A DNA stretch of 64,000 nt from Ignisphaera cupida (GTDB lineage Archaea > Thermoproteota > Thermoprotei_A > Sulfolobales > Ignisphaeraceae): positions 1 through 64,000 of the forward strand of contig NZ_JASNVW010000001.1 of assembly GCF_030186535.1 (NCBI RefSeq), written 5' to 3'. Position numbers and translations under genes: made by a program. The stretch's first letter is position 1; each line of letters opens with the position of its first letter. Below, one piece after another: positions 3,644 through 53,683 of the stretch. The notes beneath the pieces were generated by a model, which worked only from the letters and a program-made list of their open reading frames with translations, did no database searches and had not been told where the DNA came from.

Positions 3644-5230
3644 ATAAGTTGTTTTGAAATTAGAGATCAAGATCTTGCAGGCAGAATAGGAAGATTAAAA
3701 ACAAGATCAGGAACAATTGAAACTCCTTACATATTTCCTGTGATCGATCCATCTCTTAAAGAGCAATTTATTAAGCCTTCTGAGCTAATGAATATGGAAT
3801 TCAATGCTATAATTACAAATGCATATTTATTGAAAAAGCATTTTCCACATGTAAAAAATATACATAGTCATTTAAATTTTAATGGAGTTATTATGACTGA
3901 TTCAGGTGCTTATCAAATTCTTAGATATGGCAAAATAGATGTGAGTAATAAAGAAATTATAGAGTATCAATGTTTCATTGGAAGCGATATTGGAGTTATA
4001 CTCGATATTCCAACAAGATTTGATGTAAGTAAAGAAGAAGCTTATAATAGTGCAAGAGAGACATTGAATAGAGCAAAGGAAGCACTTAGTATAATATCTG
4101 GTGAAGCTTGCAGAAATACTTTATGGACCTTACCTATTCAAGGTGGGATTTATTTAGATGTTCTCAGCGAATCTGCAGCAAAATCTGTAGATTTATTTTA
4201 TCAAGGTTTTAGCATTTTTGCACTAGGAAGTCCAACAACACTACTTGAGCAGTATTTATTCGATAAAGTAATTGACATGATATTCACTGTTAGATCAAAA
4301 TTGCCATTTGCTGCTCCTCTTCATTTATTTGGTGCTGGACACCCACTGATATTGCCTTTTGCTGTAGCCCTTGGTGTAGATCTGTTTGATTCTGCTAGTT
4401 ATATACTCTATGCAAAGGACAATAGATACATCACGCGAAGAGGAACTTATAGACTTGAAGAGCTAGACTATGCTCCATGCCAATGCCCCATATGTTCAAA
4501 ACATTCACCAAAGGAATTATTAGAAATGACAAAAAATGAAAGAATAAGGCTTCTTGCAATGCATAATCTGTATGTAATTAAAGAGGAAATAAATGAAATT
4601 AAACAAGCCATAAAGGAGGGTAGGTTTTGGGAATACCTAGAATTTAAAGCAAATGCTCATCCATCTACTAAGAAAGCATTTACAACAATTCTTAAGTATG
4701 TAGAATATCTTTACAAGCATTCACCATTGTCAAAACCAAATGCTAGAGCAGTCTTAATTTTGTCTGAATATTCTATATTTAATCCGAGAATTGTTCACGC
4801 CAAAAGAAAAATGCTGTCTGAGGGAATTCATAGTAACAAAGATGTATTGATATTTCTTCCCTACATATTTAAAGAAAAATATGAAGTTAGAGACCTCATA
4901 AAAAGTCTTACAAAAGAAATTGATATGAATACTCAAAAAATAGGTGTATACCTCTACTATCCAGTTATAGGGGCTGTGCCCTGGGAGCTCAGACATGTCT
5001 ATCCATATTCTCAGTTTGAGCTTAGTTTAGATAAGCTTACAGAAAACATTGTTATTGATTTAGCTCATCACATCTTCAAAATCATTATGATGTCGAAAAA
5101 TGCTTCAATAATATATTTAGTAAGTAGTGGAGAAGAATGGCAAGAGGAATTGTATAAAAAGATAGTTAAACTAGTAGAAAACTCTGGTAAGAGATCTTCA
5201 ATTAAATTCTTATTATTTGATAAACAGTAG
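3644..5230 (+). CDS. tgtA: archaeosine tRNA-guanine transglycosylase, catalytic part (ATA start proposed)
   Basis: arcTGT exchanges guanine-15 of tRNA for preQ0 on the way to archaeosine. Visible features: the nucleophile/recognition region MTDSGAYQILRYG, the LFGAGHPLILPFAVALGVDLFDSA segment, and the zinc site CQCPIC with a downstream His (AMH). A canonical start appears only at the GTG at 3740, but the frame is open upstream and encodes the family's standard N-terminus (FEIRDQDLAGRIGRLKTRSG, then IETPYIFPVIDP). No ATG, GTG or TTG exists there; the ATA at 3644, one base after the preceding stop, gives SCFEIRD as expected. The protein, about 528 residues, lacks the terminal PUA domain, which is supplied by the separate gene at 5968-6483. 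Confidence 0.88.
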   Translation: MSCFEIRDQDLAGRIGRLKTRSGTIETPYIFPVIDPSLKEQFIKPSELMNMEFNAIITNAYLLKKHFPHVKNIHSHLNFNGVIMTDSGAYQILRYGKIDVSNKEIIEYQCFIGSDIGVILDIPTRFDVSKEEAYNSARETLNRAKEALSIISGEACRNTLWTLPIQGGIYLDVLSESAAKSVDLFYQGFSIFALGSPTTLLEQYLFDKVIDMIFTVRSKLPFAAPLHLFGAGHPLILPFAVALGVDLFDSASYILYAKDNRYITRRGTYRLEELDYAPCQCPICSKHSPKELLEMTKNERIRLLAMHNLYVIKEEINEIKQAIKEGRFWEYLEFKANAHPSTKKAFTTILKYVEYLYKHSPLSKPNARAVLILSEYSIFNPRIVHAKRKMLSEGIHSNKDVLIFLPYIFKEKYEVRDLIKSLTKEIDMNTQKIGVYLYYPVIGAVPWELRHVYPYSQFELSLDKLTENIVIDLAHHIFKIIMMSKNASIIYLVSSGEEWQEELYKKIVKLVENSGKRSSIKFLLFDKQ

Positions 5231-5971
5231 CTAGGTGTGCATAACACTTTCTTTTTTCTCCAACCCTAGCAACATTTCTTGCACGCTTCTCTCTAACTCC
5301 TCAATTTTTTCGGCATACTTTATGAGCTCTTCAACATCAACTGATATATCTAGCAATGAGTTTAAAGCCTTAATAGCTATGGCAGTTGCTCTATGATCAA
5401 CACTTTCAGGCTCTGTATATGGGAATATGGCTATGGCTGGTATATTATTTTTTTCTAGTTCTATTAACAACGATGCTATTGGCCCCACGATATATGCACC
5501 TTTTATAAAGTAAGGCTTATCTAATGTAACATTGCTTGCTTTTGTTTTTAGCCATCTAAATTCTTCATTTCCTTCACGAAAACGTATATCAAGTCCTCCT
5601 ACTAGATATACACATTCTATTTTCAAGCTTTTTAACAATTTAGTAAATGCTTTAACAAAACTCGTTAAGTATCTTCTATCTGGATTTATTCTATTAAGCA
5701 ACACAGTTATGCCTAAATTATTCAAATCCTTAAAGAATACTTCATGTGGCATGCTCAATCCATATTCTTCAACAGATGTAAAGTCTGGAATGTATGGAGG
5801 TTCTATGTATCCTATTAAACTCATGGCAAGTTTTGACACCAAGTATCTTGTTGTTAAATATCCTACTGTGCCAAATCCTTGAAAACCAGTAATTAAAACC
5901 ATTTTCTCCTTTACTATGCTATTAGTATTGACAAGTAACCTTAGGTTATATTTTCTCTTCACAACCATCAC
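5231..5971 (-). CDS. PAC2-family protein (proteasome assembly chaperone homologue)
   Basis: A 246-residue PAC2-fold protein. The N-terminal half contains VLITGFQGFGTVGYLTTRYLV, followed by PHEVFFKD, LVGGLDIRF and IKGAYIVGPIASLLIELEKNNIPAIAIFPYTEPESVDHRA, a run typical of the archaeal PAC2 family. It ends with a helical, probably coiled tail (VEELIKYAEKIEELERSVQEML). It is the last gene of a PAN, PUA protein, PAC2 operon: its start (GTG 5971 or ATG 5968) overlaps the preceding stop in a TGATG arrangement, suggesting re-initiation. Eukaryotic PAC2-type proteins help assemble the 20S proteasome; linkage to PAN supports a proteasome role here, but that is inference. Confidence 0.82.
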   Translation of the reverse strand: MMVVKRKYNLRLLVNTNSIVKEKMVLITGFQGFGTVGYLTTRYLVSKLAMSLIGYIEPPYIPDFTSVEEYGLSMPHEVFFKDLNNLGITVLLNRINPDRRYLTSFVKAFTKLLKSLKIECVYLVGGLDIRFREGNEEFRWLKTKASNVTLDKPYFIKGAYIVGPIASLLIELEKNNIPAIAIFPYTEPESVDHRATAIAIKALNSLLDISVDVEELIKYAEKIEELERSVQEMLLGLEKKESVMHT

Positions 5972-6483
5972 CTTTCTACTTTTTCACGAACTTGCACCGC
6001 AGGACCTCTTAAACTAGTTATCATTGCCTCATAACTAATAATCGCTCTTCCCACACCTATGAGATTATCTTCTTCATCTACTATTAAGACTTCATCAAAT
6101 GGCTTTATATTTTCATCACCTTGTATAACATGTTTTGAAAAAATAGTGTGAGATCCCATTATATCAGGCACAATTTCGTTAATTACTACAATACGGTGCT
6201 TTGGAAATGGTATTACTTTATGGAGCAAGATGGCTAGTGGAATGTGAGGTATTAATCTAAAGTCAGAAGCTCTAATAAAAGCAAACATCTCATTTCTATA
6301 CATTATTGCTCTTAATCTTTTTGTTTTTTTAGAATAGCAAAAGGATAAGTCATCTAGGTTAAGATTCTCTACAATTTTTTGTGTATAGTCTCCATAAAAA
6401 TAGTTTAGCAGCAATATTAGCATGTCTATTTCATCTCTTGTAGGTTTGGAGCAATATTGGATTTTGCTAAGAGAATTTGACAT
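5968..6483 (-). CDS. PUA-domain protein, separate C-terminal module of arcTGT (TgtA2-like)
   Basis: The C-terminal part (about residues 90-171) is a PUA domain: HRIVVINEIVPDIM, IFSKHVI, FDEVLIVDEEDNLIGVGRA. The N-terminal part (RLRAIMYRNEMFAFIRASD) matches the C2 region of archaeosine transglycosylases. The transglycosylase at 3644-5230 lacks exactly these domains, so the pair reconstitutes a full arcTGT split into two genes, an arrangement known from some crenarchaea. The two halves are 0.7 kb apart and on opposite strands; this half is co-transcribed with PAN and PAC2 instead. The gap to PAN is 20 bases and it overlaps PAC2. Confidence 0.82.
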   Translation of the reverse strand: MSNSLSKIQYCSKPTRDEIDMLILLLNYFYGDYTQKIVENLNLDDLSFCYSKKTKRLRAIMYRNEMFAFIRASDFRLIPHIPLAILLHKVIPFPKHRIVVINEIVPDIMGSHTIFSKHVIQGDENIKPFDEVLIVDEEDNLIGVGRAIISYEAMITSLRGPAVQVREKVER

Positions 6484-6502
6484 GTGTAAATCACAAATAT
6501 AC

Positions 6503-7696
6503 TTATAGGTGATATTCTATTGCTTCTCTACTTTGTGACATGGATTGAGCAATACCTGCATAAGGTCTAAATCTTTTCTTCAAAACTTTTTCTATTGCAT
6601 ATAGAAAATCCTTTCTTTCTATAACCAATCTATTGCTTCTTATAGCATGTAAAGCAGCTTCTGTACATATTGCTCTTATATCAGCTCCTGTAGCACCTTC
6701 TGTCATCTTAGCTAATTCTACTAAATCAACATCTATTGCAAGTGGCATTTTTCTTGTATGGATTTTAAATATTTCATAGCGTCCTTTTATATCTGGTAGT
6801 GGTATTTCAATTATTTTATCGAATCTGCCAGGTCTTAGAATGGCTGGGTCCAATATATCAATTCTATTAGTTGTTGCAATAATCTTGACATTGTCTAAGG
6901 GGTCAAAACCATCTATTTCAGCTAGCAGCTGTGTTAGTGTTCTATGTATCTCTCTTTCACCACTTGTTCCCACATCAAGTCTTTTAGCAGCTATTGCATC
7001 TATTTCATCTATTAGTACTATTGCTGGTGCTTTTCTTCTAGCTAATGCAAAAACTTCTTTAACAAGTCTAGCACCTTCACCAATAAATTTCTGTGCAAGT
7101 TCTGATGCCACAATTCGAATAAATGTTGCATTACTTTCGTGCGCAACTGCTTTTGCAAGAAGTGTTTTTCCACAGCCTGGAGGACCATAGAGTAAAACCC
7201 CTTTTGGAGGCTCTATACCCATAGCCTTAAATATAAACGGGTTTTTCAATGGTAGCTCAACAACCTCTCTAATCTCAGCTATTTGCTGCTCCAAACCTCC
7301 AATATCGCTATATGTGACATTAGGTCTTTCAATAACCTCAAATACCCTAACACTAGGATCTTCAACTCTTGGCAAAACCTCTACAATTGCTGAACCTCTT
7401 TGATTTAGGGCGACAGAAACACCAGGTCTTAATTTTGATTTATCAACAACCTCTAAAACATTAACTATTAACACAGGTCCTGATGAACTTCTTACAATAG
7501 CTCTTCCATCCGGCAAAACATCTATCAATGTTGCTTCTACAAGAGGTGGTGCAGTAAGTTTTTCTAGCTGAGATTTATAATATTCAAGCTCTTCCTTGTA
7601 TTTAAATAGCAGTTCTCTTAGTGTGGAAATATCTAGCATATCTATGTTTATTTCCGCATTATCCTTGTATTTATCGATACTATTCTCAAATTCCAT
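6503..7696 (-). CDS. proteasome-activating nucleotidase (PAN)
   Basis: A 397-residue AAA+ unfoldase. Residues about 25-48 are a predicted coiled coil ([20 protein letters not shown]), 50-115 an OB domain ([19 protein letters not shown]), and then the AAA module with Walker A GPPGCGKT, Walker B LIDEIDAI, sensor IIATTNR and arginine fingers [14 protein letters not shown] hexamers unfold proteins and feed the 20S proteasome; a proteasome beta subunit is encoded at 56.5 kb. The C-terminus reads EAIEYHL: the tyrosine is third from the end, not second as in the canonical HbYX gate-opening tail. First gene of an operon with a PUA protein and a PAC2 chaperone homologue. Confidence 0.95.
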
Positions 7697-7791
7697 TTCA
7701 ATACTTCGCCTCTATTTCTCCTAAGATACTTAAATAATTTAAAGCTAAAAACATTTTTCCCAGATACTTATATAGGTGAGCGCAACTGGGA

Positions 7792-8346
7792 ATAAGCAAA
7801 AACATTGTTTACTGCGAATTGTGTGGCGAGCCCATCACCAATGGAAAACAACACAAAGTCTCTATAGACAATACCATATTGACGGTGTGTGACAGCTGCT
7901 TTATTAAACTAAGCAAAAATAAGTTTGATGAAAAAACAAACAAAAAAGCAACACAGAAAAAGCCTAGTACAGCAAGCATTATATCCAAACAAGTGCAGAG
8001 CTTGAAAACTCAAGTATCATCAACTCAAATCAAAAAAAGGAGCACCATTTCATATGATCGCTATGAACTTGTTGATGACTATGCTGAAAGAATAAAAAAG
8101 GCTCGTGAATCATTAGGATGGTCACAGTCTACACTAGCTGTAAAAGCTAAGGTTAGTGAAAACATTATTAAGAGGATAGAAAGTGGAAAGCTTCGACCAT
8201 CATTTGACTTAGCTAAAAAACTTGAGGAAATTCTAAACATAAGGCTTCTTGTACCTATAGTTGAAGAAGAGCTAAAAAAAGGTAGAGACATAGTAAAAGA
8301 GGTTACATTAGGAGAGATTGTGAATATTAGAGGAGAAAAGGAGTAA
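7792..8346 (+). CDS. aMBF1, archaeal multiprotein bridging factor 1 homologue (non-canonical start)
   Basis: The N-terminal zinc ribbon (YCELCGEPI, then VCDSCF), a basic linker, and a C-terminal HTH (YAERIKKARESLGWSQSTLAVKAKVSE, shown in two parts by the DYAERI and GWSQSTL motifs) are diagnostic of aMBF1, a conserved transcription/translation-associated HTH protein. The first canonical start (TTG 7819) falls between the two cysteines of the first CxxC, which cannot be right. Upstream to the stop at 7777 there is no ATG, GTG or TTG in frame; ATA at 7792 (giving SKNIVYCELCG) or ATT at 7804 are the only sensible starts. A TATA box TTATATA at 7768-7774 places transcription start very near, so the mRNA is probably leaderless or nearly so; GGTGAG lies at 7775-7780. 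Confidence 0.88.
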   Translation: MSKNIVYCELCGEPITNGKQHKVSIDNTILTVCDSCFIKLSKNKFDEKTNKKATQKKPSTASIISKQVQSLKTQVSSTQIKKRSTISYDRYELVDDYAERIKKARESLGWSQSTLAVKAKVSENIIKRIESGKLRPSFDLAKKLEEILNIRLLVPIVEEELKKGRDIVKEVTLGEIVNIRGEKE

Positions 8347-8364
8347 GTACTAGCATAATGGGGA

Positions 8365-9507
8365 TTGATAATTAAAGAGAATACAATTTTAGTTATTAAG
8401 AAGGAAGATATGCAATACATAGATGAAATTGTTGCAGTGGTTAAAGAAGCAGGGTTTGAGCCCAAGCTTGTTGTTAAAATATCGAAAATCGATACAAGCT
8501 GCTACCTTACATACGGCAAAATATTGAAACTTAAATATGAAATGGAGAGCAACAATGTAAAAAAGCTTTGTATATATGATAATTTGAAGCCTAGGCAGAT
8601 AACGTGTTTGATGAAGGAATTGAATGCAGAAATCATTGACCATGTTATGTTATTGCTTAAAATATTTCAAATGCATGCAGGTTCTAAAGAGGCGTTGCTT
8701 CAAATTGAAATGGCTCGACTTTTGCATGAATTACCTCTCATTAGGGAATGGATTAGAAGAAGCAAAATGGGTGAATTACCTGGTTTCCTTGGTGGAGGCA
8801 GATATGCTATAGATGTTCAGTATGAGCATGTAAGAAGAAGAATAGCTAGGATACGAAAAGAGTTAAGTGAGATAAGAGCTAGGAGACAAATTGAAAGAGA
8901 AAGAAGAAGAAGTTCTGGATGGATACATGTAGCAATAATAGGCTACACTAATGCAGGAAAGACATCACTTTTCAATGCTTTAACTAATCTAAACAAACCA
9001 ACTGGAAATGAAATGTTTACTACATTAACACCAAAATCATATGCTATAAATATTTGCAGTGAAGATGCAGAGAAAATTGTATTGGTAGATACAATAGGAT
9101 TTATTAAGAAATTGCCTATTGAAATTATTGAAGCATTCAAAGTTGTTCTTGAGGAAATAAGACATGCGGACATATTACTACTTGTTATAGATGTTAGTAA
9201 AGATTTTGCCTCTATACATAACGAAATTGATTCTTCGCTTAACATTTTAAGTAATATAGGCTTTGAAGGCAAACCTATGATTATTGCCTTAAATAAGATA
9301 GATCTTTTAAATTCTCAACACAAAAAAGAGGGAAACATTGATGAAATTATTGAGGCTATTCACAAATATTTGCTAAGTAGAAATGTAAATGTGATAGGAA
9401 TTATCCCAATTTCTGCTTTAAAAGGTTTAAACATAGATACATTAAAGGAGTTTATATGTCGAGCTGTATCTCAGTTGAAGATCTTAAAAAACATGTATAT
9501 GTATTAA
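8365..9507 (+). CDS. hflX: HflX-family GTPase
   Basis: An Obg-related ribosome-associated GTPase of 380 residues. The N-terminal domain carries the glycine-rich GELPGFLGGGRYAIDV segment, then a basic helical linker (RRRIARIRKELSEIRARR), then the G domain: G1 GYTNAGKTS, a G2 threonine region (MFTTLTPK), G3 DTIGF, G4 NKID, and G5 near PISALKG. HflX proteins bind the large subunit and in bacteria rescue or split ribosomes. The start is a TTG at 8365 after GGGG, but the ATA at 8368 is also possible given the use of ATA elsewhere. Its last 52 bases overlap the start of Trm56. Confidence 0.93.
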   Translation: MIIKENTILVIKKEDMQYIDEIVAVVKEAGFEPKLVVKISKIDTSCYLTYGKILKLKYEMESNNVKKLCIYDNLKPRQITCLMKELNAEIIDHVMLLLKIFQMHAGSKEALLQIEMARLLHELPLIREWIRRSKMGELPGFLGGGRYAIDVQYEHVRRRIARIRKELSEIRARRQIERERRRSSGWIHVAIIGYTNAGKTSLFNALTNLNKPTGNEMFTTLTPKSYAINICSEDAEKIVLVDTIGFIKKLPIEIIEAFKVVLEEIRHADILLLVIDVSKDFASIHNEIDSSLNILSNIGFEGKPMIIALNKIDLLNSQHKKEGNIDEIIEAIHKYLLSRNVNVIGIIPISALKGLNIDTLKEFICRAVSQLKILKNMYMY

Positions 9508-10025
9508 GGCTTGGCCATAGACCTCAAAGAGATCGTAGAGTCACAACACATGTTGCACTTGTTGCTAGAGCTTTTGGTGCTAGGGGAATCTACATAGCTA
9601 ATGTTATTGACAAAAATGTTAAACAGTCCGTAGATAAGGTTATTAAGAGGTGGGGAGGATCATATTTTGAAGTAATAGATGGTGTTAACCCATTTGAGAT
9701 TATAAAGCAATACAAAAAAGAAAAATCATGTATTGTTCATTTAACTATGTATGGACTCCCAATAGATAAAGCAATTACAAATATTATAGAGGAATGCGAA
9801 AAGATTTTAGTTATTGTTGGTGCTGAAAAAGTTGAGAGAGTTTTTTATGAATTGGCTGATTATAATATAGCTATAGGAAATCAACCACATTCAGAGGTTT
9901 CTGCGTTAGCACTATTTTTAGATAGATTATGGCAAGGACGTGAAATGAATTTATGTTTCCCTGACGCAAAATATTATATTGTACCAAGTGCTAAAGATAA
10001 GATGGTGAAACGAGTTGAGAGATAG
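9456..10025 (+). CDS. tRNA (cytidine(56)-2'-O)-methyltransferase (Trm56)
   Basis: A SPOUT-class methyltransferase that methylates C56 in the T-loop of archaeal tRNAs. The block [29 protein letters not shown] (key residues LGHRP, RD and TTHV) is characteristic, as are [41 protein letters not shown], the SAM-binding trefoil-knot portion. The ATG at 9456 follows an AAAGGAG Shine-Dalgarno; this makes a 52-base overlap with hflX and about 18 residues before the conserved core. Crenarchaea that lack this gene use a C/D box RNA instead; here the enzyme is present. Confidence 0.92.
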   Translation: [189 protein letters not shown]

Positions 10026-10542
10026 CGAACTACTTAAAATTATAGAGCAAATGTATGGAGCTAGTGGAAGAAAGGTTTTAGAAACTCTTTTAAATTCCTC
10101 TAGCGGCAAAACAATTGATGAAATTGCACAAGAAACAGGTATCAGAGTAAATGATGTGAGAAGACTATTGTATGAGATGAGTAGTGGAGGATTTGTTGCA
10201 TATATTCGTAGCCAACGAGGCGAAAGTCATTGGTATAATTATCGCTGGTTTTCAAACTACTCAATGATTAAAGCTGCTATATCAAGAAGAATTAAGGATG
10301 TTATTAGGGTTTTACATGAGAGATTAAACTATGAATCAAATAATACATTCTATATATGCCCAAATGATTTCAGCATATACACATTTGATGAAGCATTTGA
10401 AAACAATTTTCAGTGTATACACTGTGGTTCAGATCTTGTAGAATTCAATAACAAACTTATAACATCTTATTTAACTAATGTCCTTGAGAAGCTTAGAAAA
10501 ATCAATAACAATCATTTGGCTGATTTAAATAATGAAGCCTAG
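10015..10542 (+). CDS. tfe: transcription factor E, alpha subunit (TFE)
   Basis: Residues 1-85 are a winged helix (KVLETLLNSSSGKTIDEIAQ, GIRVNDVRRLLYEMSSGGFV), followed by a helical linker and a C-terminal zinc ribbon (YICPND, then FQCIHCGSDL; the first half has C-x2 spacing with Asn-Asp rather than Cys, so one Cys pair is reduced). TFE stimulates promoter opening with TBP, TFB and RNA polymerase. The start is a TTG at 10015 with GGTGA at 10004-10008, 6 bases upstream, and overlaps trm56 by 11 bases. It in turn overlaps the methyltransferase gene by 11 bases, so trm56, tfe and the methyltransferase form one tightly coupled unit. Confidence 0.9.
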   Translation: MRDSELLKIIEQMYGASGRKVLETLLNSSSGKTIDEIAQETGIRVNDVRRLLYEMSSGGFVAYIRSQRGESHWYNYRWFSNYSMIKAAISRRIKDVIRVLHERLNYESNNTFYICPNDFSIYTFDEAFENNFQCIHCGSDLVEFNNKLITSYLTNVLEKLRKINNNHLADLNNEA

Positions 10543-22990: not shown

Positions 22991-23020
22991 ACAAATCCTA
23001 CGTTATGTAGGTGAAACGCA

Positions 23021-23980
23021 ATAGCAAGTGCTATTTGCTCTATATGTGGAAGAAATAAAGCTATTTTCTATCAAAGACATACTGGTTTAAGACTTTGTAA
23101 GAAATGTTTTATTGAGGATGTTAAAAATAGGGTTTTAGAGCAAATTAGTAAGTATCAAATGATATTGCCTGGAGATACTGTATTGGTAGGGGTTTCAGGA
23201 GGTAAGGATAGCTATGTCTTATTAAAAATTTTAGCTGAGGTACATAATCCGTCAAAAATAATTGGATTAATGATTGATGAGAATATTCATGGATATAGCA
23301 GAGCCGATGTTTTTGACTTTTTGAAGAAAACATGCCATGATCTTGGTGTGGATTGCATAAATACAAGTATTAAGAAAGAGCTTGGCTATGGTGTAGATGA
23401 TTTTATGTTAATGCAGATAAAGAAGTATAGCAGTATAAAAGTAAGTGCTTGTACTTTTTGTGGTATTGCAAGAAGAAGAATATTAAATGCTTATGCTAGG
23501 ACATTTAATGTGAATAAAGTTGCTACAGGACATAATCTAGATGATGAAGTTCAAACATATTTGATAAACATATTGAGAGGTGATTTAATGAGACTTATAC
23601 AACTACATCCATTGAGTATGACACATAGTAAATTACTTGTTAAGAGAATTAAACCAATCAGAGCCATATATGAATATGAAACATCGTTTATGGCGTATAT
23701 AGAGAATTTTAAATTTCAGGAAACAGAATGTCCATATATTCTTCAAAGACCTACACTAAGAGCAAGAATACGTGAACTAATTAAAGATATTGAAAAATTC
23801 TATCCAGGTATTCAAATAAAGCTTTTGAAATATGTAGATGAAATTCTAGAGCCATTAGTTAAATCAACCAATACAAAACCAATAGAATTGCCACTATGCT
23901 CGAAATGTGGAGAACCAACATCGCCAGGCAGAATTATATGCAAATTCTGTGAATTAGTAAATGAGGTACTTAACATATAG
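23021..23980 (+). CDS. ttuA: TtuA/Ncs6-type tRNA 2-thiolation enzyme (ATA start)
   Basis: An ATP-pyrophosphatase that thiolates uridine in tRNA. It has an N-terminal zinc finger (ICSICGRNKAIFYQ, LRLCKKCF), PP-loop VGVSGGKDSYVLLK, the CTFCG cysteine that helps hold the Fe-S cluster, GHNLDDEVQTYLIN, a partner Cys in ETECPY, and a C-terminal zinc finger (LCSKCGEPTS, CKFCEL). The first canonical start (ATG 23159) would delete the whole N-terminal zinc finger. The frame is open upstream to 23015 with no ATG, GTG or TTG; ATA at 23021 lies 6 bases after AGGTGA at 23009-23014, an ideal Shine-Dalgarno distance. About 319 residues. Confidence 0.92.
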   Translation: MASAICSICGRNKAIFYQRHTGLRLCKKCFIEDVKNRVLEQISKYQMILPGDTVLVGVSGGKDSYVLLKILAEVHNPSKIIGLMIDENIHGYSRADVFDFLKKTCHDLGVDCINTSIKKELGYGVDDFMLMQIKKYSSIKVSACTFCGIARRRILNAYARTFNVNKVATGHNLDDEVQTYLINILRGDLMRLIQLHPLSMTHSKLLVKRIKPIRAIYEYETSFMAYIENFKFQETECPYILQRPTLRARIRELIKDIEKFYPGIQIKLLKYVDEILEPLVKSTNTKPIELPLCSKCGEPTSPGRIICKFCELVNEVLNI

Positions 23981-27623: not shown

Positions 27624-28172
27624 CTAAAACCTTAATCCAAGGTTCTTCAATCTTTCGTATATATGCAATGATTCATCCTGAAATAGCTCAATAGCATTTC
27701 TTAGTTTGTTTTTATCAATTTTTATATCATTCTTTTTTGCAAGTTCTATTACCATAGATAATTTTGCTAAATCCTGATTTGAACCTCTTCTTGCTTTTAA
27801 TACCATCCAACACTCTTTTGATATACAGGAAATTTTTTCTCCACTTATTTCATATTCCTGTTTGCATAATTCTATTAGTTCTTGTGGTATGTAAAAATCC
27901 ATGATATTTTCAAATAACTCTACAACTACTTCTTCATCATTTACAGTCATTGTTATTGATGGTGTTCCCAGTGTTGTTACCCCTATACTCCAGCCTTTTT
28001 CCCTAGCTATCTCATTTATCTTATTAGCTTCTAGTAACGGACTTGTGGAAGTTACAAAAAGATCTATATCTCCTTCAAAAGTCTTATTTCCCATTTCCAT
28101 ATTTAAGCATGTATCTCCTATTATTATTCCTTCAATGCCTTCATTGGAAAGCTCTTTAAGAGCTCTGACTAT
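27624..28172 (-). CDS. nucleotidyltransferase-fold protein, start uncertain
   Basis: From the first canonical start (ATG 28100) the protein has 158 residues: GDIDLFVTSTSPL (nucleotidyltransferase G-D-x-D-like), WSIGVTTLGTPSI, VELFENIMDFYIP. The frame is open further up to 28196 and encodes a family-like N-terminus (YTLKHIVRALKEL, GIEGIIIGDTCLN) with no ATG, GTG or TTG. Starts could be ATA (28172) or, with a frameshift, the ATG at 28200 which follows GGGG nine bases after the eL40 stop. It belongs to the eL40 transcript. Substrate unknown; possibly an inactive or regulatory member. Confidence 0.6.
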   Translation of the reverse strand: MVRALKELSNEGIEGIIIGDTCLNMEMGNKTFEGDIDLFVTSTSPLLEANKINEIAREKGWSIGVTTLGTPSITMTVNDEEVVVELFENIMDFYIPQELIELCKQEYEISGEKISCISKECWMVLKARRGSNQDLAKLSMVIELAKKNDIKIDKNKLRNAIELFQDESLHIYERLKNLGLRF

Positions 28173-28208
28173 GTGTTTTAATGTATATTGCGTATATCAT
28201 CCCCAACT

Positions 28209-35384: not shown

Positions 35385-35499
35385 TTTGATATCCACATTT
35401 GTTGCAGCTATACTGTTTAATTGCAAAGAATTAATAGGCTTTTAAATCTGTGTGTTTAGGAGATATTCACAGCAAATTTTAATTAAGACAAGGTGAATA

Positions 35500-35709
35500 G
35501 TGCTGGCAATTGCTGTTACAAAAATTGTGCTTTATGAAATAGCTGGTGCAAGAATATGCTCAAGTTGTAAAAAGCCTATTGCACCAGATGAAAAAGCTGT
35601 TAGTTTTAGATGTCCAAATTGTGGTGCTGTAACTATATGGCGATGCTATAAATGTAGAACCATGGGAGTTCCATACAAGTGTCCAAATTGTGGATTTGAA
35701 GGACCTTAA
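35500..35709 (+). CDS. zinc-ribbon protein (COG2888 type)
   Basis: 69 residues with four CxxC knuckles: [39 protein letters not shown]. Archaeal proteins of this type are RNA-binding or RNA-associated and usually precede the elongation factor 1 beta gene, as here: the stop abuts the next start. The first residues ([18 protein letters not shown]) may include an over-long start; the conserved part begins around GARIC. Confidence 0.88.
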
Positions 35710-47110: not shown

Positions 47111-47604
47111 ATGAATTCACCACTTCTTTCAATTTTTGGAAAACTCATTTTTGAAACCTCGTAATACGTTACATCACCATACATATCAACAACAGCTATA
47201 ACTAGTTTATATCCCTGCTTAATAGCTCTATCAACAGTGTTATAAAGATTCTCAACATTTATTACAGCATCTTCATCGAGAACAAGTATTCTTGTTTTTT
47301 CATCAACAAGTACAAGCTCATTCTTAGAAACACCCATTGAAACCTTTTTGCCTCTTTTCAGCAAATCCATTAATACAAGAAATATTGATGTGTTTACACT
47401 GCTTTGAATTCTTTTAATAAACTCATCAAAACCAATCTTCACATTATTTTCATTTACCACATCAGCCACATTATTATATATCAAATAAAACGCTAATGCT
47501 GGGTCAATTTGCTTACCAGCTTCGGGTTCTTCTACAACAATTCTACCATCAGCTAATATCTTTAGTATAGTCTTTTTCTTGGAACCCATTGAAGATGCTG
47601 ACAC
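47107..47604 (-). CDS. tRNA-splicing endonuclease structural (beta) subunit
   Basis: 165 residues. The C-terminal LVIAVVDMYGDVTYYEVSKM matches the conserved strand of tRNA intron endonucleases, and LVLMDLLKRGKKVSMGVSKNELV is a degenerate version of the catalytic-domain start. The catalytic Tyr/His/Lys triad is not seen, so this is best read as the non-catalytic partner of the crenarchaeal heterotetramer; the catalytic subunit is outside the window. The N-terminal domain (ILKILADGRIVVEEPEAGK) fits. It leads the hisS operon. Confidence 0.72.
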   Translation of the reverse strand: MSASSMGSKKKTILKILADGRIVVEEPEAGKQIDPALAFYLIYNNVADVVNENNVKIGFDEFIKRIQSSVNTSIFLVLMDLLKRGKKVSMGVSKNELVLVDEKTRILVLDEDAVINVENLYNTVDRAIKQGYKLVIAVVDMYGDVTYYEVSKMSFPKIERSGEFI

Positions 47605-47684
47605 CTAGTCTAGATAAGTTTAATACTAAGTAGCATAGTTACTTTAATAAAAAGGTTTTTGTTTCATTATTTGAGGTGTTTTAA

Positions 47685-48731
47685 ATGTATCCAATAAAGG
47701 TTAAGGCTATTGAGTGGACTGGAAAGGGTGTTAAGTGGCTTAACACTAATCTTTTACCTCATCAGGAGGTTTACGAGGAGAGTAGTGATTATGAACGTGT
47801 TGCGAAAGCTATAGAATCTATGGAGATTAGAGGTGCTCCAGCAATTGGTGTGGCAGCAGCATTTGCGGTAGCAGCTGCAGTTGTTAATGCTGATATAAAT
47901 GATGTTTCTAAACTAAGATTGCTTGCTGTAAAGGCTATTGAAAGACTTAGCAGAACAAGGCCAACAGCCTACAACCTTTTCTGGGCCTTGGAGAGAATGA
48001 GAAAAGTTGTGATGAAAGAGTATAGCAATGGAGATGAGTTGAGAAAAGCTATTGTCAATGAGGCTTTAAAGATTTACAATGAAGATATTGAAACAAATAT
48101 AAAAATTGGTGAAATTGGTGAAAAGCTTATAGAAGATGGAGACACTATTCTAACACATTGCAATGCAGGTGCATTAGCTACAGCAGCTTTTGGAACAGCA
48201 CTTGCAGTAATTAGAGTTGCGTGGTACAAGGGAAAAAGAATTAGTGTTATAGCTACAGAGACAAGACCTGTTTTGCAAGGTGCTAGACTAACGGTTTGGG
48301 AATTGAGAAAAGAGGGCATACCTGTAACCCTAATAACAGATAACATGGTTGGATATGTTATGTATAGAAAACTTGTTAACAAGGTTATTGTTGGTGCAGA
48401 TAGAATTTTGGGAGATGGCCATGTGATAAACAAAATAGGTACATACACTATCGCAATAGCTGCAAAAAGACATGGAATACCATTCTATGTGGCTGCACCA
48501 ACATCTACATTTGATTTAAGATCTAGAATAGATGAGGTGAAGATAGAGGAAAGAAATCCTGATGAAGTTAGAAAGGTTCTAAATAGAGCACTTATAACGA
48601 TAGAGGATGTTAATGTGCTGAACCCGGCATTCGATATAACACCACCAGATTTGGTTACAGGTATTATAACTGAAAAAGGTATTGTTACAGAACCTTATAC
48701 AGAGAACATAAAGAAGCTGTTTTCCCTTTAA
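47685..48731 (+). CDS. mtnA: methylthioribose-1-phosphate isomerase (MtnA/eIF2B-like family)
   Basis: 348 residues. SMEIRGAPAIGVAAAFAVA, ILTHCNAGALATAAFGTAL (catalytic Cys), VIATETRPVLQGARLT, VIVGADRILGDGHVINKIGTYTIA (catalytic Asp), VAAPTSTFD and LVTGIITEKG. Acts in methionine salvage; the close eIF2B-alpha homology is known. Start ATG at 47685. Confidence 0.9.
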   Translation: MYPIKVKAIEWTGKGVKWLNTNLLPHQEVYEESSDYERVAKAIESMEIRGAPAIGVAAAFAVAAAVVNADINDVSKLRLLAVKAIERLSRTRPTAYNLFWALERMRKVVMKEYSNGDELRKAIVNEALKIYNEDIETNIKIGEIGEKLIEDGDTILTHCNAGALATAAFGTALAVIRVAWYKGKRISVIATETRPVLQGARLTVWELRKEGIPVTLITDNMVGYVMYRKLVNKVIVGADRILGDGHVINKIGTYTIAIAAKRHGIPFYVAAPTSTFDLRSRIDEVKIEERNPDEVRKVLNRALITIEDVNVLNPAFDITPPDLVTGIITEKGIVTEPYTENIKKLFSL

Positions 48732-48774
48732 ACTTCATTTAGATAGTACAGATTTCTTCAGCTTACTACCCCAT

Positions 48775-49527
48775 CTACTTTTTCTTAATCGCGCTAATAA
48801 TTTTTATTGCGTCATCAATTTTCTCTTCAACTACAGTACCAGTAACTATTATATCTGCACCAGCATTTACGATTTCCAATGCCTTGCTATAATCTCTAAT
48901 GCCTCCACCAACAATTAGTATTGTATCATCAATAGCTTTCTTAACTTTTTCAACAAAATATGGTGGTACAGGTTGTGGTGCACCAGACCCTGCTTCTAGA
49001 TAAACAAATTTCATGCCTAAAAACTTTGCTGCTAAAGCATATGCTACACCTATTCCAGGTTTGTCGTAGGGTAAAGGCCTTGCTTTTCCAATTACACTTA
49101 CAGATGTATTTGCATTGCCAACAACTATATAGCCTGTAGGCAAAACCTCTAAACCAATTCTTTTTATAAGAGGTGCTGCAGTAACATGGGCTCCAACTAT
49201 GTAGTATGGATCGTCAGAATTAAGCAACGATATGAATAGTATTGCATCAGCATTTCTAGCAAGACCCATTGGATTTCCTGGAAAGAGTATTGATGGAACA
49301 TTGAATTCCTCAACAAGCTTCACAATTCTTTCAACATCATCAACATAAACTTGGAGACTACCACCAACAAGTATAGCATCTGTACCAGCATCAACAACTT
49401 TTCTTAAGGCATTTGAGAACTCCTTCAAATTTTCTATTTTCTCAGGATCTACTAAGGTAAAGTGAAGTTTTAGCCCCTTATCAACACCACTTCTTATCAT
49501 CTCATATACTTTGCCTCTAAACCTCAA
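48775..49527 (-). CDS. geranylgeranylglyceryl phosphate synthase
   Basis: 250 residues. LHFTLVDPEKIENL, GTDAILVGGSLQV, PSILFPGNPMGLARNADAILFISLLNS, VYLEAGSGAPQPV, TILIVGGGIRDYSKALEIVNAGADIIVTGTVVEE. It makes the first ether bond of archaeal lipids from G1P, which is made by the enzyme at 57.3 kb. Confidence 0.95.
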   Translation of the reverse strand: MRFRGKVYEMIRSGVDKGLKLHFTLVDPEKIENLKEFSNALRKVVDAGTDAILVGGSLQVYVDDVERIVKLVEEFNVPSILFPGNPMGLARNADAILFISLLNSDDPYYIVGAHVTAAPLIKRIGLEVLPTGYIVVGNANTSVSVIGKARPLPYDKPGIGVAYALAAKFLGMKFVYLEAGSGAPQPVPPYFVEKVKKAIDDTILIVGGGIRDYSKALEIVNAGADIIVTGTVVEEKIDDAIKIISAIKKK

Positions 49528-49572
49528 AACACTTCACCATCCACATTAATACTTAACACTTTCATGATTATA

Positions 49573-49929
49573 CTACTTTCTCAATACACTACTTAAATGT
49601 TTTCGTAACGTTTTTGAGAATCCCTGCAACGCTATCTCCAACACAATATCTTTTATTGTGCTAAGATCCAGCTCTAATTTAGTTATCTTCTGCTCTTTAT
49701 AGGCTATGTAAAAACCTATCACATGATAACATGGATACCCTCTTTTACCTTGAATAAAGTGAATCACGAAATCTGTACAAGTGCAAAGCCTGCAAGGAGA
49801 AACTACATAGTCTTTGTTAAAACCTTTGAAAACATTTATGGTTACACCAGAGTTTTTATCTACTAGCAAAACAAATCTTCTATTTCTCAACGCCTCTAAC
49901 AATTTGTCATAATTTTTAAATCTATTCAC
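49573..49929 (-). CDS. SWIM zinc-finger protein
   Basis: 118 residues. CRLCTCTDFVIHF followed by YPCYHVIGFYIA is a C-x-C-x(n)-C-x-H SWIM motif. Small archaeal SWIM proteins accompany recombination or other DNA functions, but the partner here is unknown. It precedes the GGGP synthase on the same strand by 45 bases. Confidence 0.75.
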   Translation of the reverse strand: MNRFKNYDKLLEALRNRRFVLLVDKNSGVTINVFKGFNKDYVVSPCRLCTCTDFVIHFIQGKRGYPCYHVIGFYIAYKEQKITKLELDLSTIKDIVLEIALQGFSKTLRKHLSSVLRK

Positions 49930-50045
49930 ATTATCTTCAATACATAGATCATTTACATTACTTCACCAATTCTTCAACATCATACTATAAAACTTATAAA
50001 CAGTGCTATAAATACAGATGGTAGAATAGGAAAGAGGTCTAAATA

Positions 50046-50222
50046 ATGTCATCAAGAAGAAGAAGAGCAGGACCTGGCTTAGCAAGTTATGTAGGGTTAA
50101 TAAGATTCTATGAGGAAGTCGAAGAACAGATTAAGCTAAATCCATACCTTATACTATTTATCGCAATAGCAACTTCAATACTTGCAATAGCTCTCACAAA
50201 ACTTTTCCCACCACCAGTATAA
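50046..50222 (+). CDS. Sec61 beta / SecG-type translocase subunit
   Basis: 58 residues: a basic N-terminus (SSRRRRAGPGLASYVGLIRF), then an amphipathic segment with NPYLILFIAIATSILAIAL as the single membrane helix and a short external tail. Matches archaeal Sec-beta. AGAGGT lies a few bases upstream of the ATG, with TATA-like CTATAAATA about 40 bases upstream. Confidence 0.9.
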   Translation: MSSRRRRAGPGLASYVGLIRFYEEVEEQIKLNPYLILFIAIATSILAIALTKLFPPPV

Positions 50223-50288
50223 AACACTGCTAAATCGCTTTAACAAGACAACAAAAGAATAATAACCATTTAAAACTAAATTCCATTA

Positions 50289-50611
50289 GGTCCCTGGCCC
50301 ACAAGCTGCTACGGAGCAAATCCGAGGAAACACCATCCTCCGCACAGCACCAGAGCCCCGCAAGGGGCTAGGGTAACACCCTAGGCTCTGGCACAGAAAC
50401 GACACAACTGCAAACCAATGAAGATGAAGCGGCGAGGTCCCCTAGGTAACTAGGGGACAGAAAACCCGCAGATGAGGTTTGCAGATGTGGTGAAACGGCC
50501 ATCCTCTGGGGAGTAAGGAAAAACCCCGATGAATAGCTGTGTGAAGGGGGTGAAACCGCTATAGCCAAATGCAGCTAAAAACAAAAGATGGGTTATTGTG
50601 GGCCAGGGACC
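50289..50611 (+). ncRNA. rnpB: RNase P RNA
   Basis: A GC-rich 323-base block in AT-rich DNA, closed by a perfect P1 helix (GGTCCCTGGCCCACAA with TTGTGGGCCAGGGACC at the ends). Conserved regions are visible: CR-I GAGGAAA..CC near 50325, GGCACAGAAACGA near 50391, GGTGAAACGGCC near 50501, GATGAAT near 50528 and the CR-V-like ACAAAAGATGGGTT near 50581. A TATA-like ATTTAAAAC sits about 20 bases upstream. Archaeal type A architecture; it matures tRNA 5' ends. Confidence 0.92.
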
Positions 50612-51307
50612 ATTCTTCTACACATTGTTCATAGTGGTTTCTCAATTTTTTCCTATACCCCGAAGTAAAATGAGGTTAAATCTAAGCTTACCATGTTTAA
50701 ATTTTTATGAGCGTTACAAGCTCATGAGAAAACATAGACTAAGCAAACACATAACACTAAATTAAATGACAATATTTAGGACATCAGAATATCATATCTT
50801 TAAAAATCTGAGAAGATTGCGTATTAGAAACTGTTACAGACATTAAAACTAAACAACTTCCAAGCATTCTTGGATATAGTATTTTTCAAAGCAGCTATAC
50901 AAGGTTTCTTAAAAGTAAATTGTGCAGGATTTAACTGATTAGTAATTGATATAGCTTCGCTAATTTATTGAGAGCTTTTCCACAGGAACCAACGGGGTTA
51001 GTAATACTAAAACAAGTGTTGATTGCTGATCTGTATTTGTTACTAGCTAGGAGTCAGAGCCCTAGACTTCATATGTATTTTGATGTAAATATCCAAAAAC
51101 TATAAATCAATGAATTATTTTATATTGTTTGTATAATGATCTTGAAATAGTTTGAATATTACTTTAATACTATTTTTTGCAGTTTATATTTATCTTGAAA
51201 TATATAATGGTTTATGTTGTGTTTCTGTTTTGAATCAGCCTCTGAGTATGTTTATATGCAGCAAGTGAACCTGTGGGGTCTCTGTTTAAGTGGGTAAAAA
51301 GTGTTCT
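50612..51307. other. non-coding gap of 700 bases
   Basis: I find no gene. Two short similar stretches ACAGGAACC.ACGGGGTTA (about 50990) and ACAGGAACTGAAGGGGTT (about 51310) may be a decayed direct repeat. A CTAGG..CCTAG-type imperfect hairpin lies near 51045. It may be debris from an old element, or it may contain an RNA I cannot recognise. Confidence 0.35.
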
Positions 51308-52738
51308 CTACAGGAACTGAAGGGGTTCGATAATATTTGTTGTTTCTGAAACAGCTATTAGCTGGACTAATCTTGGTGTAAACTTCTTTTCTTTTGAATA
51401 TCTCGCTAAGGGTTTAATCAAGTGTTTTTGTGCATGTAGAGGAGGTAAATACATTTTGCTTTCTACTTGCCTTGGCTTTTCTTTGCAAGTAAGTTTTGGG
51501 TTGAAGTCTACATACCCACATTTTTCACATTTGTACCCCTTACCAAATCCTTTTTTACTCATTTTTGAACCACATTGCGGACATGTTGGTGATGTACATA
51601 TAAATTCTCTTAATGTTTTAAGCACCACCATTTTTTCAACATGAAAGACTGCAAGCTCATTCCATTTCTTCACATGTCCCTGTACCTCAACAAGGTCTCC
51701 AACACTTAATTTCTCTGCTATTCTATTTAACTGAGATGGTTTGAAGAATACCAAAACTATTTCACCTGTACCATCAAAAGCTTTTATAATTACTGCCCCT
51801 CCTCTTATACGATAAGGCTTAGAACCTATAACAATTTTTGCTTTTCCTGTTCTAAACGGTTTCAAATCACTAACACTTCTTTGCATAGCATGAGCATCTG
51901 TTGCCTGGTTGCTTCTAAATATTGTCCAAGCTACTACAGGTTCACATGTTTTTATAATGCTCAATGCTTTTTTCACATCTGATGGGGTTTCTCCTCTAAC
52001 ACCATATAGAACTGGGTCAAAACCTCTTGGAGTTATCAAAACTCTTTTCTCATTATAGTCATAGTTGTTAAATGTTGAATTCTTGGTTATGGAGTCAAAA
52101 ACTTTTACACTATTCTCATCAACACATCTTTTAGTTCCATAGAATTTCTTTGATCTATAGGTTAAGAGCTCGTATGTGTAATCATCCTCCTTGTAAAACC
52201 ATGCAATAGCTGCTAAAGCCCCTATAACACCGCGACCACTATACCTTTGAGAAAAGATAATACCTCTCTCTTCAAACTTTTTCTTCAAATAATCATCAAA
52301 TATAATAACATCTGTTAAAGCTTTTTCATAAATCCATGTTAACTCACTTGAAACATTTGTTGCTATTACAAGTCCAGGCTCAAAATCTGGTGTAACAAGA
52401 TCAAATTCCTTAGTCATTGAATCTATGTATTTATCAACAATGCTTTCAACAATGAGCAAAACATTTTCAGCATTTTCCAATTGATCGCATTTTGTACAAA
52501 ACCTTATTGCTATTGCACCATTGCCTCGCGTTTTCCAAGGTATAGAAGGGTTTAATCTAACAAGATTTGGATAGTCAATTAAAAACACGTTACCTATCTT
52601 CTTAGGCAATTCGTTTAAAACATATGTGGCTAAATGTGTTGTACAGCCATATTTAAGTAAATCAAAATCGTCTAAACCTAGGTGAACACAACAAATATTG
52701 CTATTATAATTCATTGCATCATCGTTTGTGTTTAGCAA
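51308..52738 (-). CDS. tiaS: tRNA(Ile2) 2-agmatinylcytidine synthetase (TiaS)
   Basis: 476 residues. GLDDFDLLKYGCTTHLATYVL at the N-terminus, GNGAIAIRF, ERGIIFSQRYSGRGVIGALAAIAW, VLYGVRGE, FRSNQATDAHA, an OB-fold region (YRIRGGAVIIKAFDGTGEIV) and a zinc ribbon (TCPQCGSKMSKKG, YKCEKCGYVD). It puts agmatine on C34 of tRNA-Ile to read AUA codons. This is notable because the same window shows AUA being used as a start codon. Confidence 0.93.
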   Translation of the reverse strand: MLNTNDDAMNYNSNICCVHLGLDDFDLLKYGCTTHLATYVLNELPKKIGNVFLIDYPNLVRLNPSIPWKTRGNGAIAIRFCTKCDQLENAENVLLIVESIVDKYIDSMTKEFDLVTPDFEPGLVIATNVSSELTWIYEKALTDVIIFDDYLKKKFEERGIIFSQRYSGRGVIGALAAIAWFYKEDDYTYELLTYRSKKFYGTKRCVDENSVKVFDSITKNSTFNNYDYNEKRVLITPRGFDPVLYGVRGETPSDVKKALSIIKTCEPVVAWTIFRSNQATDAHAMQRSVSDLKPFRTGKAKIVIGSKPYRIRGGAVIIKAFDGTGEIVLVFFKPSQLNRIAEKLSVGDLVEVQGHVKKWNELAVFHVEKMVVLKTLREFICTSPTCPQCGSKMSKKGFGKGYKCEKCGYVDFNPKLTCKEKPRQVESKMYLPPLHAQKHLIKPLARYSKEKKFTPRLVQLIAVSETTNIIEPLQFL

Positions 52739-52746
52739 TGCATTAA

Positions 52747-52992
52747 TTACTTATTGTTTTTTGTGGACACTATTATCATTGTTATTGTTGATCTAACCTT
52801 GGGAATTTTTCTAATCTTTGATGAGACAATATCCTTTAGCTTCTCAATGGTATCTGCCTCAATTTTTGCATATAGGTCATAGATTCCATAAACTATAAAA
52901 GCTTCTTTCACACCTTCCACATTCTTTATTTCTGCCAATACCTCATCCTCGGCTCCAACATCTGTATTAATCAATATTAACGCTTCTGGCAT
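52747..52992 (-). CDS. stand-alone Lrp/AsnC ligand-binding (RAM) domain protein
   Basis: About 81 residues from the ATG at 52992 (longer frame to 53004): ALILINTDVGAEDEVLAEIKNV, EGVKEAFIVYGIYDLYAKIEA, STITMIIVST. The RAM fold binds amino acids; no HTH is attached. TATA-like CTTTATATTAATG lies about 25 bases upstream, so the mRNA may be leaderless. Probably a co-regulator. Confidence 0.85.
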   Translation of the reverse strand: MPEALILINTDVGAEDEVLAEIKNVEGVKEAFIVYGIYDLYAKIEADTIEKLKDIVSSKIRKIPKVRSTITMIIVSTKNNK

Positions 52993-53119
52993 AGCACAAA
53001 TCACATTAATATAAAGCTTTCATGTGTTAGGTATATAAATTTTATATGGGTATTAAAAAATTGTTGTTTAGCAAAAAGCTAGTGGAAATAGCCACGTTGT
53101 TGCACAGGTGAGATAAACG

Positions 53120-53683
53120 ATAAACATATTTATATATTCGAAACATGAAGATGATCCTAATCTATGCACAGCTGAGAAGCTGATCAGATATGGAATTGCG
53201 AAACAAATACATAGGTATAGCGAAATACCAGATTGTTCAATAGTTCTAAATCCTTTGGCAAACAAATATTTGAAGTCTTCTGACAGAATATACATAGAGA
53301 AGTGTGGTATTGTAGCAATAGATGTTTCATGGAAAAGAGGCTTGAAGATTCTAAGAAAAATTAGAAAGGGTAATCACAGAATTTTGCCAATATTGATAGC
53401 AGCAAACAATATCAACTATGGAAAACCATTCAAACTAAGCACTGCAGAAGCACTAATAGCAGCACTACTTACAACAGGTTTTCATGAAGAGGCAATGAAA
53501 ATAGCATCGCTATTCAAATGGGGTCAGCAATTCATAGAGTTAAACAAAAATCGCATAGAAAGATACATGTTAGCTCAATCCGATGAAGAGCTAGAGCAAA
53601 TTCAAAGAGAATTATTCAGCATAAGCATTTCACAAAATATTAAAATAATTGATTTATTACACAAATACGTAGTAGAAACTTAG
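53120..53683 (+). CDS. tsr3: Tsr3-type rRNA aminocarboxypropyltransferase (ATA start)
   Basis: DUF367/Tsr3 transfers the aminocarboxypropyl group of SAM to a uridine in small-subunit rRNA. Core: KCGIVAIDVSWKRGLKIL, RILPILIAANNINYGKPFKLSTAEALIAALLTTG. The first canonical start (TTG 53255) would cut off the conserved N-terminus, which is encoded upstream (YSKHEDDPNLCTAEKLIRYG, then SIVLNPLANKYL). No ATG, GTG or TTG occurs in frame there. ATA at 53120 lies 7 bases after GGTGAG at 53107-53112. About 187 residues. Confidence 0.92.
   Translation: MNIFIYSKHEDDPNLCTAEKLIRYGIAKQIHRYSEIPDCSIVLNPLANKYLKSSDRIYIEKCGIVAIDVSWKRGLKILRKIRKGNHRILPILIAANNINYGKPFKLSTAEALIAALLTTGFHEEAMKIASLFKWGQQFIELNKNRIERYMLAQSDEELEQIQRELFSISISQNIKIIDLLHKYVVET

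What the first reader, a model, noticed from the sequence alone, without database searches (positions are those of the whole stretch)
3644..53683. ATA appears to be used as a start codon in at least four conserved genes (arcTGT, aMBF1, TtuA, Tsr3)
At 3644 (arcTGT), 7792 (aMBF1), 23021 (TtuA) and 53120 (Tsr3) the protein family's N-terminal domain is encoded upstream of the first ATG/GTG/TTG, and the frame contains none of those codons before the previous in-frame stop. Without the upstream part TtuA loses a zinc finger, Tsr3 its conserved N-terminus, aMBF1 half of its first CxxC, and arcTGT about 30 conserved residues. At TtuA and Tsr3 an AGGTGA/GGTGAG Shine-Dalgarno ends 6-7 bases before ATA. 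At arcTGT the ATA follows the upstream stop by one base. For aMBF1 an ATT is an alternative. AUA starts are rare; four in 64 kb would be remarkable. The window also encodes TiaS, which creates the AUA-reading tRNA-Ile.
Basis: partly seen in the sequence, partly recalled or inferred. Interest (0 to 1): 0.85.

Follow-up and report, generated by a model that had tools for sequence, protein, structure and literature searches.

The report
Many non-standard start codons in Ignisphaera
In the heat-loving archaeon Ignisphaera some core genes start at codons other than ATG, GTG or TTG (ATA, ACG, CTG and others), apparently because a ribosome-binding signal at a fixed distance marks the start; this was not described for archaea in the papers I could search, and it makes standard gene finders cut these proteins short.

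Summary
The observation mostly holds. At all four genes the conserved N-terminus lies upstream of every in-frame ATG/GTG/TTG, and close orthologues show the same. The ATA reading is right for at most one of the four. aMBF1 starts at CTG (7786), conserved in six genomes, with TTG or GTG in the rest. Tsr3 starts at ACG (53117), where relatives carry ATG, GTG or TTG. In arcTGT the ATA is not conserved; Ignisphaera carries a fixed one-base shift after a TTG. TtuA's ATA is plausible (TTA in two relatives). Two more window genes qualify: an ACG nucleotidyltransferase (28193) and a GTA small protein (49956).

The general rule is Shine-Dalgarno-positioned initiation at near-cognate codons. PurQ is the cleanest case: GGTGA, six bases, then ATA, CTG, ACG, GTG or TTG in different species, with no gaps. 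A MoaD-like gene has ATA in 10 of 11 genomes. Near-cognate codons are enriched at exactly that distance (P = 5e-5), but not in a control lineage. aIF1A (ATA) and perhaps aIF2-beta (ATT) are among them, suggesting feedback like bacterial infC. The initiator tRNA gene looks ordinary and aIF1 is present. New variant of a known kind.

The parts
23010..23023 (+). TtuA: SD GGTGA (23010-23014, its TGA is the in-frame stop), 6 nt, start ATA (23021-23023); gene to 23980
   Evidence: TTA at the same place in G005/G006; N-terminal LIM domain only with the upstream part
7775..7788 (+). aMBF1: SD GGTGA (7775-7779), 6 nt, start CTG (7786-7788); gene to 8346. The ATA at 7792 is not the start
   Evidence: CTG in G000, G001, G003, G005, G006, G009; TTG/GTG in G002, G004, G007, G008, G010 and six other family members; no ATG start apparent in any
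53107..53119 (+). Tsr3: SD GGTGA (53107-53111), 5 nt, start ACG (53117-53119); gene to 53683. The ATA at 53120 is codon 2
   Evidence: canonical starts of G009, G003, G008, G007 (ATG), G002, G015, G017, G026 (GTG) and G004 (TTG) align with this ACG; PRK02287 profile position 3 aligns with the residue after the ATA
3644..5230 (+). arcTGT. In-frame ATA 3644, AGT 3647, TGT 3650; out-of-frame TTG 3649-3651 followed by TTT TGA; likely UUG start with +1 shift, or UGU start
   Evidence: TGT aligns with ATG of G002; the T before TGT is kept in 10/10 genomes; ATA not conserved
27624..28204 (-). DUF2204 nucleotidyltransferase: SD-like GGGGA (28200-28204), 6 nt, start ACG (28191-28193), gene end 27624
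   Evidence: ACG in 8 of 11 Ignisphaera genomes; ATG at the same codon in G002, G004, G010
49573..49967 (-). Small protein with CxC..CxH pattern (SWIM-like by pattern only): SD GGTGA (49963-49967), 6 nt, start GTA (49954-49956)
   Evidence: GTA in G000/G005/G006, ATT in G004/G010, ATC in G002, ATG in G001/G003; no Pfam hit
35492..35709 (+). HVO_2753-type zinc finger protein: SD GGTGA (35492-35496), 6 nt, CTG 35503-35505; a GTG at 35500 (3 nt after the SD) is the alternative
   Evidence: G005 has ATA-ATA-CTG at the same place
51308..52738 (-). TiaS, tRNA(Ile2) agmatidine synthetase; in the window but no evidence that it is involved

Best explanation
In Ignisphaera (and at least partly in relatives such as the lineage of G011 and the Sulfolobus-type genomes G046/G055) a strong Shine-Dalgarno sequence, GGTGA or close, 5-7 nt upstream fixes the P-site codon so firmly that ordinary initiator tRNA(CAU) starts at codons with one mismatch to AUG: AUA, CUG, ACG, AUU and AUC, and perhaps with two (GUA, UUA). 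The genes affected are a small set (about a dozen found in roughly half the genome), many of them in translation and tRNA modification; weak starts probably keep their output low, and in aIF1A, aIF2-beta and aMBF1 could give feedback on initiation stringency. ArcTGT is a separate case: a +1 shift immediately after a UUG start. Shown by sequence: position, spacing, conservation, lack of alternatives. Inferred: that these codons are decoded as methionine by the normal initiator, and the regulatory role.
For: PurQ in 10 genomes: GGTGA-N6-[ATA x3, CTG x2, ACG, GTG x3, TTG] then the conserved N-terminus, no gaps, SD's TGA as in-frame stop. MoaD-like gene: ATA at one codon in 10/11 genomes, 5-7 nt after GGTGN, ATG there in G002. 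DUF2204: ACG in 8/11 genomes at SD+6/7, ATG in three others. aMBF1 CTG in six genomes. Tsr3 ACG. ORFs that open at the TGA of GGTGA and lack canonical codons 1-6: near-cognate at codon 3 in 10 of 19 against a background of 0.13, P = 5e-5; pooled with the other Ignisphaera stretches and G055 P = 1e-6; control lineage 0 of 8. Single-contig genomes (G009, G055) show it too, against sequencing error. Initiator tRNA gene ordinary; aIF1 present.
Against: No protein or ribosome data. GTA and TTA have two mismatches and are weaker cases. Some genes (GatE, aIF1A, aIF2-beta, HVO_2753) have a canonical codon slightly downstream or upstream. Only about half of the genome was read. The 3' end of 16S rRNA of this genome was not seen, so the SD match rests on the established archaeal anti-SD sequence.
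Confidence: 0.85

Rival explanations
1. ATA specifically has become a start codon, for instance because TiaS also modifies the initiator tRNA or a second initiator tRNA reads AUA.
For: ATA at SD+5-7 in the MoaD-like gene of 10 genomes, PurQ of three, TtuA, GatE, TadC-like and aIF1A genes; GTA and TTA would fit an initiator that reads third-position A.
Confidence: 0.07
2. The genes really start at downstream canonical codons and the conserved upstream part is leader.
For: Downstream canonical codons exist in every frame.
Against: It would delete the first conserved strand of the MoaD-like protein, the PurQ N-terminus, the TtuA zinc finger and part of DUF2204; the SD sits 5-7 nt from the near-cognate codon but tens of nucleotides or more from the first canonical one in the strong cases; the upstream residues are conserved at protein level.
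Confidence: 0.04
3. The starts are out-of-frame ATG/GTG/TTG codons followed by programmed frameshifting.
For: arcTGT: TTG TTT TGA or TTG TTT CGA in 10/10 genomes, one T more than the TTG TTC GAG of L317; CGA is rare, 1.5 per 1000. TtuA and the small zinc-binding-like protein have an ATG/GTG one base off.
Against: PurQ, DUF2204 of most species, aMBF1 and the MoaD-like gene show no such conserved out-of-frame start; in TtuA the out-of-frame codon is 13 nt from the SD.
Confidence: 0.1
4. Sequencing or assembly errors, or RNA editing back to AUG.
For: Most relatives are draft or metagenome assemblies.
Against: Same codons in independent assemblies and in single-contig genomes; several different codon types at one position, which no single editing reaction would restore.
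Confidence: 0.02

Closest known systems
E. coli infC (IF3) AUU start and pcnB AUU start (from general knowledge)
   Same: Near-cognate start codon behind an SD; in infC the product controls start codon fidelity, giving feedback; here aIF1A (ATA) and perhaps aIF2-beta (ATT) would be the counterparts.
   Different: There one or two genes per genome; here a dozen or more, with several codon types that interchange between orthologues, in archaea.
Archaeal SD-dependent initiation at AUG, GUG, UUG (review PMC7531240)
   Same: GGTGA-type SD, same spacing, aIF1/aIF1A/aIF2 machinery.
   Different: The passages found in the review name only AUG, GUG and UUG as start codons.
Non-AUG initiation in eukaryotes and chloroplasts (PMC5487733, PMC9845219, listed, abstracts only)
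   Same: Near-cognate codons, low efficiency, often regulatory.
   Different: Chosen by scanning context or, for chloroplast ACG, often by editing (general knowledge); here by SD distance.
Programmed +1 frameshifting of the prfB (RF2) type (general knowledge; recoding review PMC5009743 listed)
   Same: arcTGT: UUU followed by UGA in 0 frame, slip to UUU/UUC in +1.
   Different: It would occur at the second codon, right after initiation, and with CGA instead of UGA in six genomes.

Membership tests
SD-directed near-cognate (non-AUG) initiation | Start codon differs from AUG by one base and is not GUG/UUG | tested here: met
   ATA, CTG, ACG, ATT, ATC at aligned start positions; GTA/TTA cases differ by two bases
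SD-directed near-cognate (non-AUG) initiation | SD at the distance used by normal starts | tested here: met
   ATG/TTG/GTG and near-cognates peak at the same codon, GGTGA+6
SD-directed near-cognate (non-AUG) initiation | Orthologues carry a canonical start at the same position | tested here: met
   PurQ, DUF2204, MoaD-like, Tsr3, aMBF1
SD-directed near-cognate (non-AUG) initiation | Protein N-terminus begins with Met at that codon | not testable with these tools
   needs N-terminal proteomics
Autoregulated fidelity-factor start (infC type) | Fidelity factor itself has the weak start | tested here: inconclusive
   aIF1A ATA and aIF2-beta ATT at GGTGA+6 in this genome, each with a later canonical codon; aIF1 and aIF2-gamma have canonical codons available
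Autoregulated fidelity-factor start (infC type) | Expression responds to factor level | not testable with these tools
   needs reporters
Reassigned start codon ATA | Only ATA (or NTA) is affected | tested here: not met
   CTG, ACG, ATT, ATC equally placed
Reassigned start codon ATA | Dedicated or altered initiator tRNA | tested here: not met
   one initiator-type tRNA gene, CAU, A1-U72, GGG/CCC stem; a few of the 42 tRNA loci were not read; modification not testable
prfB-type +1 frameshift (arcTGT only) | Slippery UUU N followed by stop or rare codon | tested here: met
   TTG TTT TGA or TTG TTT CGA in 10/10 genomes; CGA 1.46 per 1000
prfB-type +1 frameshift (arcTGT only) | Upstream SD-like stimulator at short distance | tested here: inconclusive
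   AAGG[GC]TGA-type sequence about 6 nt before TTG in three genomes, 8-9 nt in others (read by eye)

The most novel reading that the evidence does not exclude
A whole archaeal lineage lets SD position override codon identity, so that start codons drift freely among all near-cognates, and uses this to wire feedback on initiation stringency through its own initiation factors (aIF1A, aIF2-beta) and aMBF1, plus a genus-wide fixed +1 frameshift at the second codon of arcTGT.
Probability: 0.3. Interest if true: 0.88.

Novelty: new variant of a known kind. Interest (0 to 1): 0.72.

Why it matters
Start codon choice is taken to be AUG, GUG or UUG in archaea, and gene finders assume it. Here orthologous genes swap ATA, ACG, CTG, GTG and TTG at one SD-fixed position, a natural series for measuring how far SD pairing can replace codon-anticodon pairing, in organisms with an aIF1/aIF1A/aIF2 system close to that of eukaryotes. 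It also means that proteins such as PurQ, TtuA and aIF1A may be annotated truncated or missing in these genomes.

Tried and rejected
ATA-only rule: rejected after the genus alignment. NTA rule (ATA/GTA/TTA only), entertained after TtuA and the small zinc-binding-like protein: rejected by CTG and ACG. General frameshift rule: rejected except for arcTGT. Loss of aIF1: rejected. A tRNA with UAU anticodon acting as initiator: none seen among tRNAs read. Raw counts of codons after GGTGA in all frames were too noisy because GGTGA is common inside genes; restricting to ORFs opened by the SD's own TGA gave a clean signal. The G046/G055 pair was too similar (96%) for the missing-start pipeline, so only the SD test was used there. 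The tail of the PurQ query was guessed beyond residue 19; it served only to locate the gene. The codon-share figures use an assumed usage for AAG and are not relied on. Literature searches turned up no report of ATA, ACG or CTG starts in archaea; only titles and abstract openings were seen for most hits, and subscription papers are not held.
Full report
Scope and conventions. The window is C1:1-64000 of a 1.74 Mb, 14-contig genome (G000). Its ten same-genus relatives include MAGs named Ignisphaera; G009, a single contig of 1,875,953 bp, is by size I. aggregans DSM 17230, and G055 (2,225,959 bp) is by size S. acidocaldarius (both from memory, not tested). 'd' is the number of bases between the last A of GGTGA (or the fifth base of GGTGN) and the start codon.

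Observation. The four frames were read back to the previous stop: arcTGT, TtuA and Tsr3 contain no ATG, GTG or TTG before the conserved N-terminus, and aMBF1 none before its first CxxC. Reciprocal comparison of 850 kb of this genome with stretches of G005, G006 and G009 found the same lack in orthologues of arcTGT and aMBF1, and in the two closest relatives for TtuA. So the genes do lack canonical starts, and not through a local sequencing error.

Which codon is the start. For each gene I aligned the 5' ends across the genus. aMBF1: CTG 6-7 nt after GGTGA in G000, G005, G006 and G009, and 5 nt after GGTGG in G001 and G003; the remaining Ignisphaera and six other family members have TTG or GTG; no ATG start is apparent. 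Tsr3: nine relatives have ATG, GTG or TTG exactly where this genome and G005 have ACG, the codon before the ATA; ACG is 5 nt after GGTGA here (G005 also has an ATG five codons upstream of it). TtuA: GGTGA-N6 is kept in the three closest genomes but the codon is ATA, TTA, TTA; most other relatives begin one to two codons further on with ATG, TTG or GTG.

More cases. In the window: a DUF2204 nucleotidyltransferase (27624-28193, minus) with ACG, where G002, G004 and G010 have ATG, and where G001, G003, G007, G008 and G009 have GGTGT-N6/7-ACG one codon on; and a small protein (49573-49956, minus) with GTA, ATT or ATC at GGTGN-N6, ATG in G001 and G003. A HVO_2753-type zinc finger gene at 35503 (CTG) is possible. 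Elsewhere: a MoaD/ThiS-like protein (ThiS and Urm1 hits) with ATA at one codon in 10 of 11 genomes; a TadC-like membrane protein (named by eye), ATA in two genomes; GatE, ATA at GGTGA-N6 in three genomes with a later TTG; PurQ, aIF1A (ATA), aIF2-beta (ATT), cytidylate kinase (CTG).

PurQ is the strongest single piece. A pattern search for an SD followed by the PurQ N-terminal motif found ten genomes, all with GGTGA, six bases and then ATA (G000, G004, G011), CTG (G009, G008), ACG (G007), GTG (G001, G002, G013) or TTG (G023). The TGA of the SD is the in-frame stop, so nothing upstream can serve, and the alignment has no gaps.

Statistics. Among ORFs of at least 90 codons that open at the TGA of GGTGA, canonical codons peak at codon 3 (49 of 82 in this genome; other positions 2-11). 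Of the 19 without a canonical codon in codons 1-6, ten have a near-cognate codon at codon 3 against 0.134 per position elsewhere, P = 5e-5. G055 shows the same (4 of 6, P = 0.006, mainly ATT). In the control lineage G044/G054 codon 3 is ATG, GTG or TTG in 25 of 36 ORFs and no near-cognate is found in the other class (0 of 8). The effect is thus lineage-dependent, although the control genomes are also richer in G+C (46-53%).

Machinery. The initiator-type tRNA gene is ordinary: anticodon CAU, A1-U72, three G-C pairs in the anticodon stem. aIF1 is present in all Ignisphaera genomes. TiaS is present but nothing links it to initiation. [quoted passage not shown] solfataricus (cited in PMC6237735), so its presence means that SD pairing must outweigh it at these sites.

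arcTGT. Of 80 loci fetched, all those outside the Ignisphaera loci L303, L304, L306, L307 and L309 and one misaligned locus (L347) have a canonical in-frame start within 12 codons of the conserved FE motif. The Ignisphaera sequence reads TTG TTT TGA or TTG TTT CGA, one T more than needed for Met-Phe-Glu-Ile, and the T that completes TTG is kept in 10 of 10 genomes although its codon otherwise varies. The best reading is a UUG start followed by a +1 shift of tRNA-Phe from UUU to UUU/UUC, helped by a stop or a rare CGA codon (1.46 per 1000). A UGU start is the alternative. This step is inference.

Why these genes. Weak starts fall on tRNA modification, amidotransferase and initiation genes in this sample, but the window is itself rich in such genes, so no functional bias is claimed. 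The feedback idea rests on aIF1A, aIF2-beta and aMBF1 and on analogy with infC; it is inference.

Known or new. Near-cognate initiation is known in bacteria, organelles and eukaryotes. For archaea the review consulted names AUG, GUG and UUG (PMC7531240), and searches of the library turned up no report of the kind seen here. I file it as a new variant of a known kind.

Noticed in passing
G000 C1 about 551559, minus (o0-68441): aIF1A appears to start at ATA (GGTGGTGA-AAACCT-ATA-GCA-AAA); a GTG six codons on is the alternative.
   Followed up: partly
G000 C1 about 553234, minus: aIF2-beta has GGTGA-N6-ATT; a TTG nine codons on is the alternative.
   Followed up: partly
G046/G055 fetched stretches (L262-L281): Sulfolobus-type genomes have GGTGA-N6-ATT in four long ORFs (one with a homoserine-dehydrogenase-like N-terminus, one hydrolase-like) and ATA in a PDCD5-like gene; names read by eye.
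   Followed up: partly
window 49950-49967, minus, and G005/G006 orthologues: An out-of-frame ATG followed directly by TAA/TAG overlaps the GTA start; a conserved start-stop pair that might be regulatory.
   Followed up: no
window 23021 and G000 C4:1102: TtuA and a MoaD/ThiS-like protein, a possible sulfur carrier for it, both have ATA starts in this genome.
   Followed up: no
G005 and G006, orthologues of own C1 about 90957 (f0+97992, s0+88855): ACG at GGGGA-N6 where this genome has ATG; a further near-cognate case in the sister species.
   Followed up: no
G000 C1:146794, minus: A 276-codon ORF with GGTGA-N6-ATA and a weak HepT-like match.
   Followed up: no
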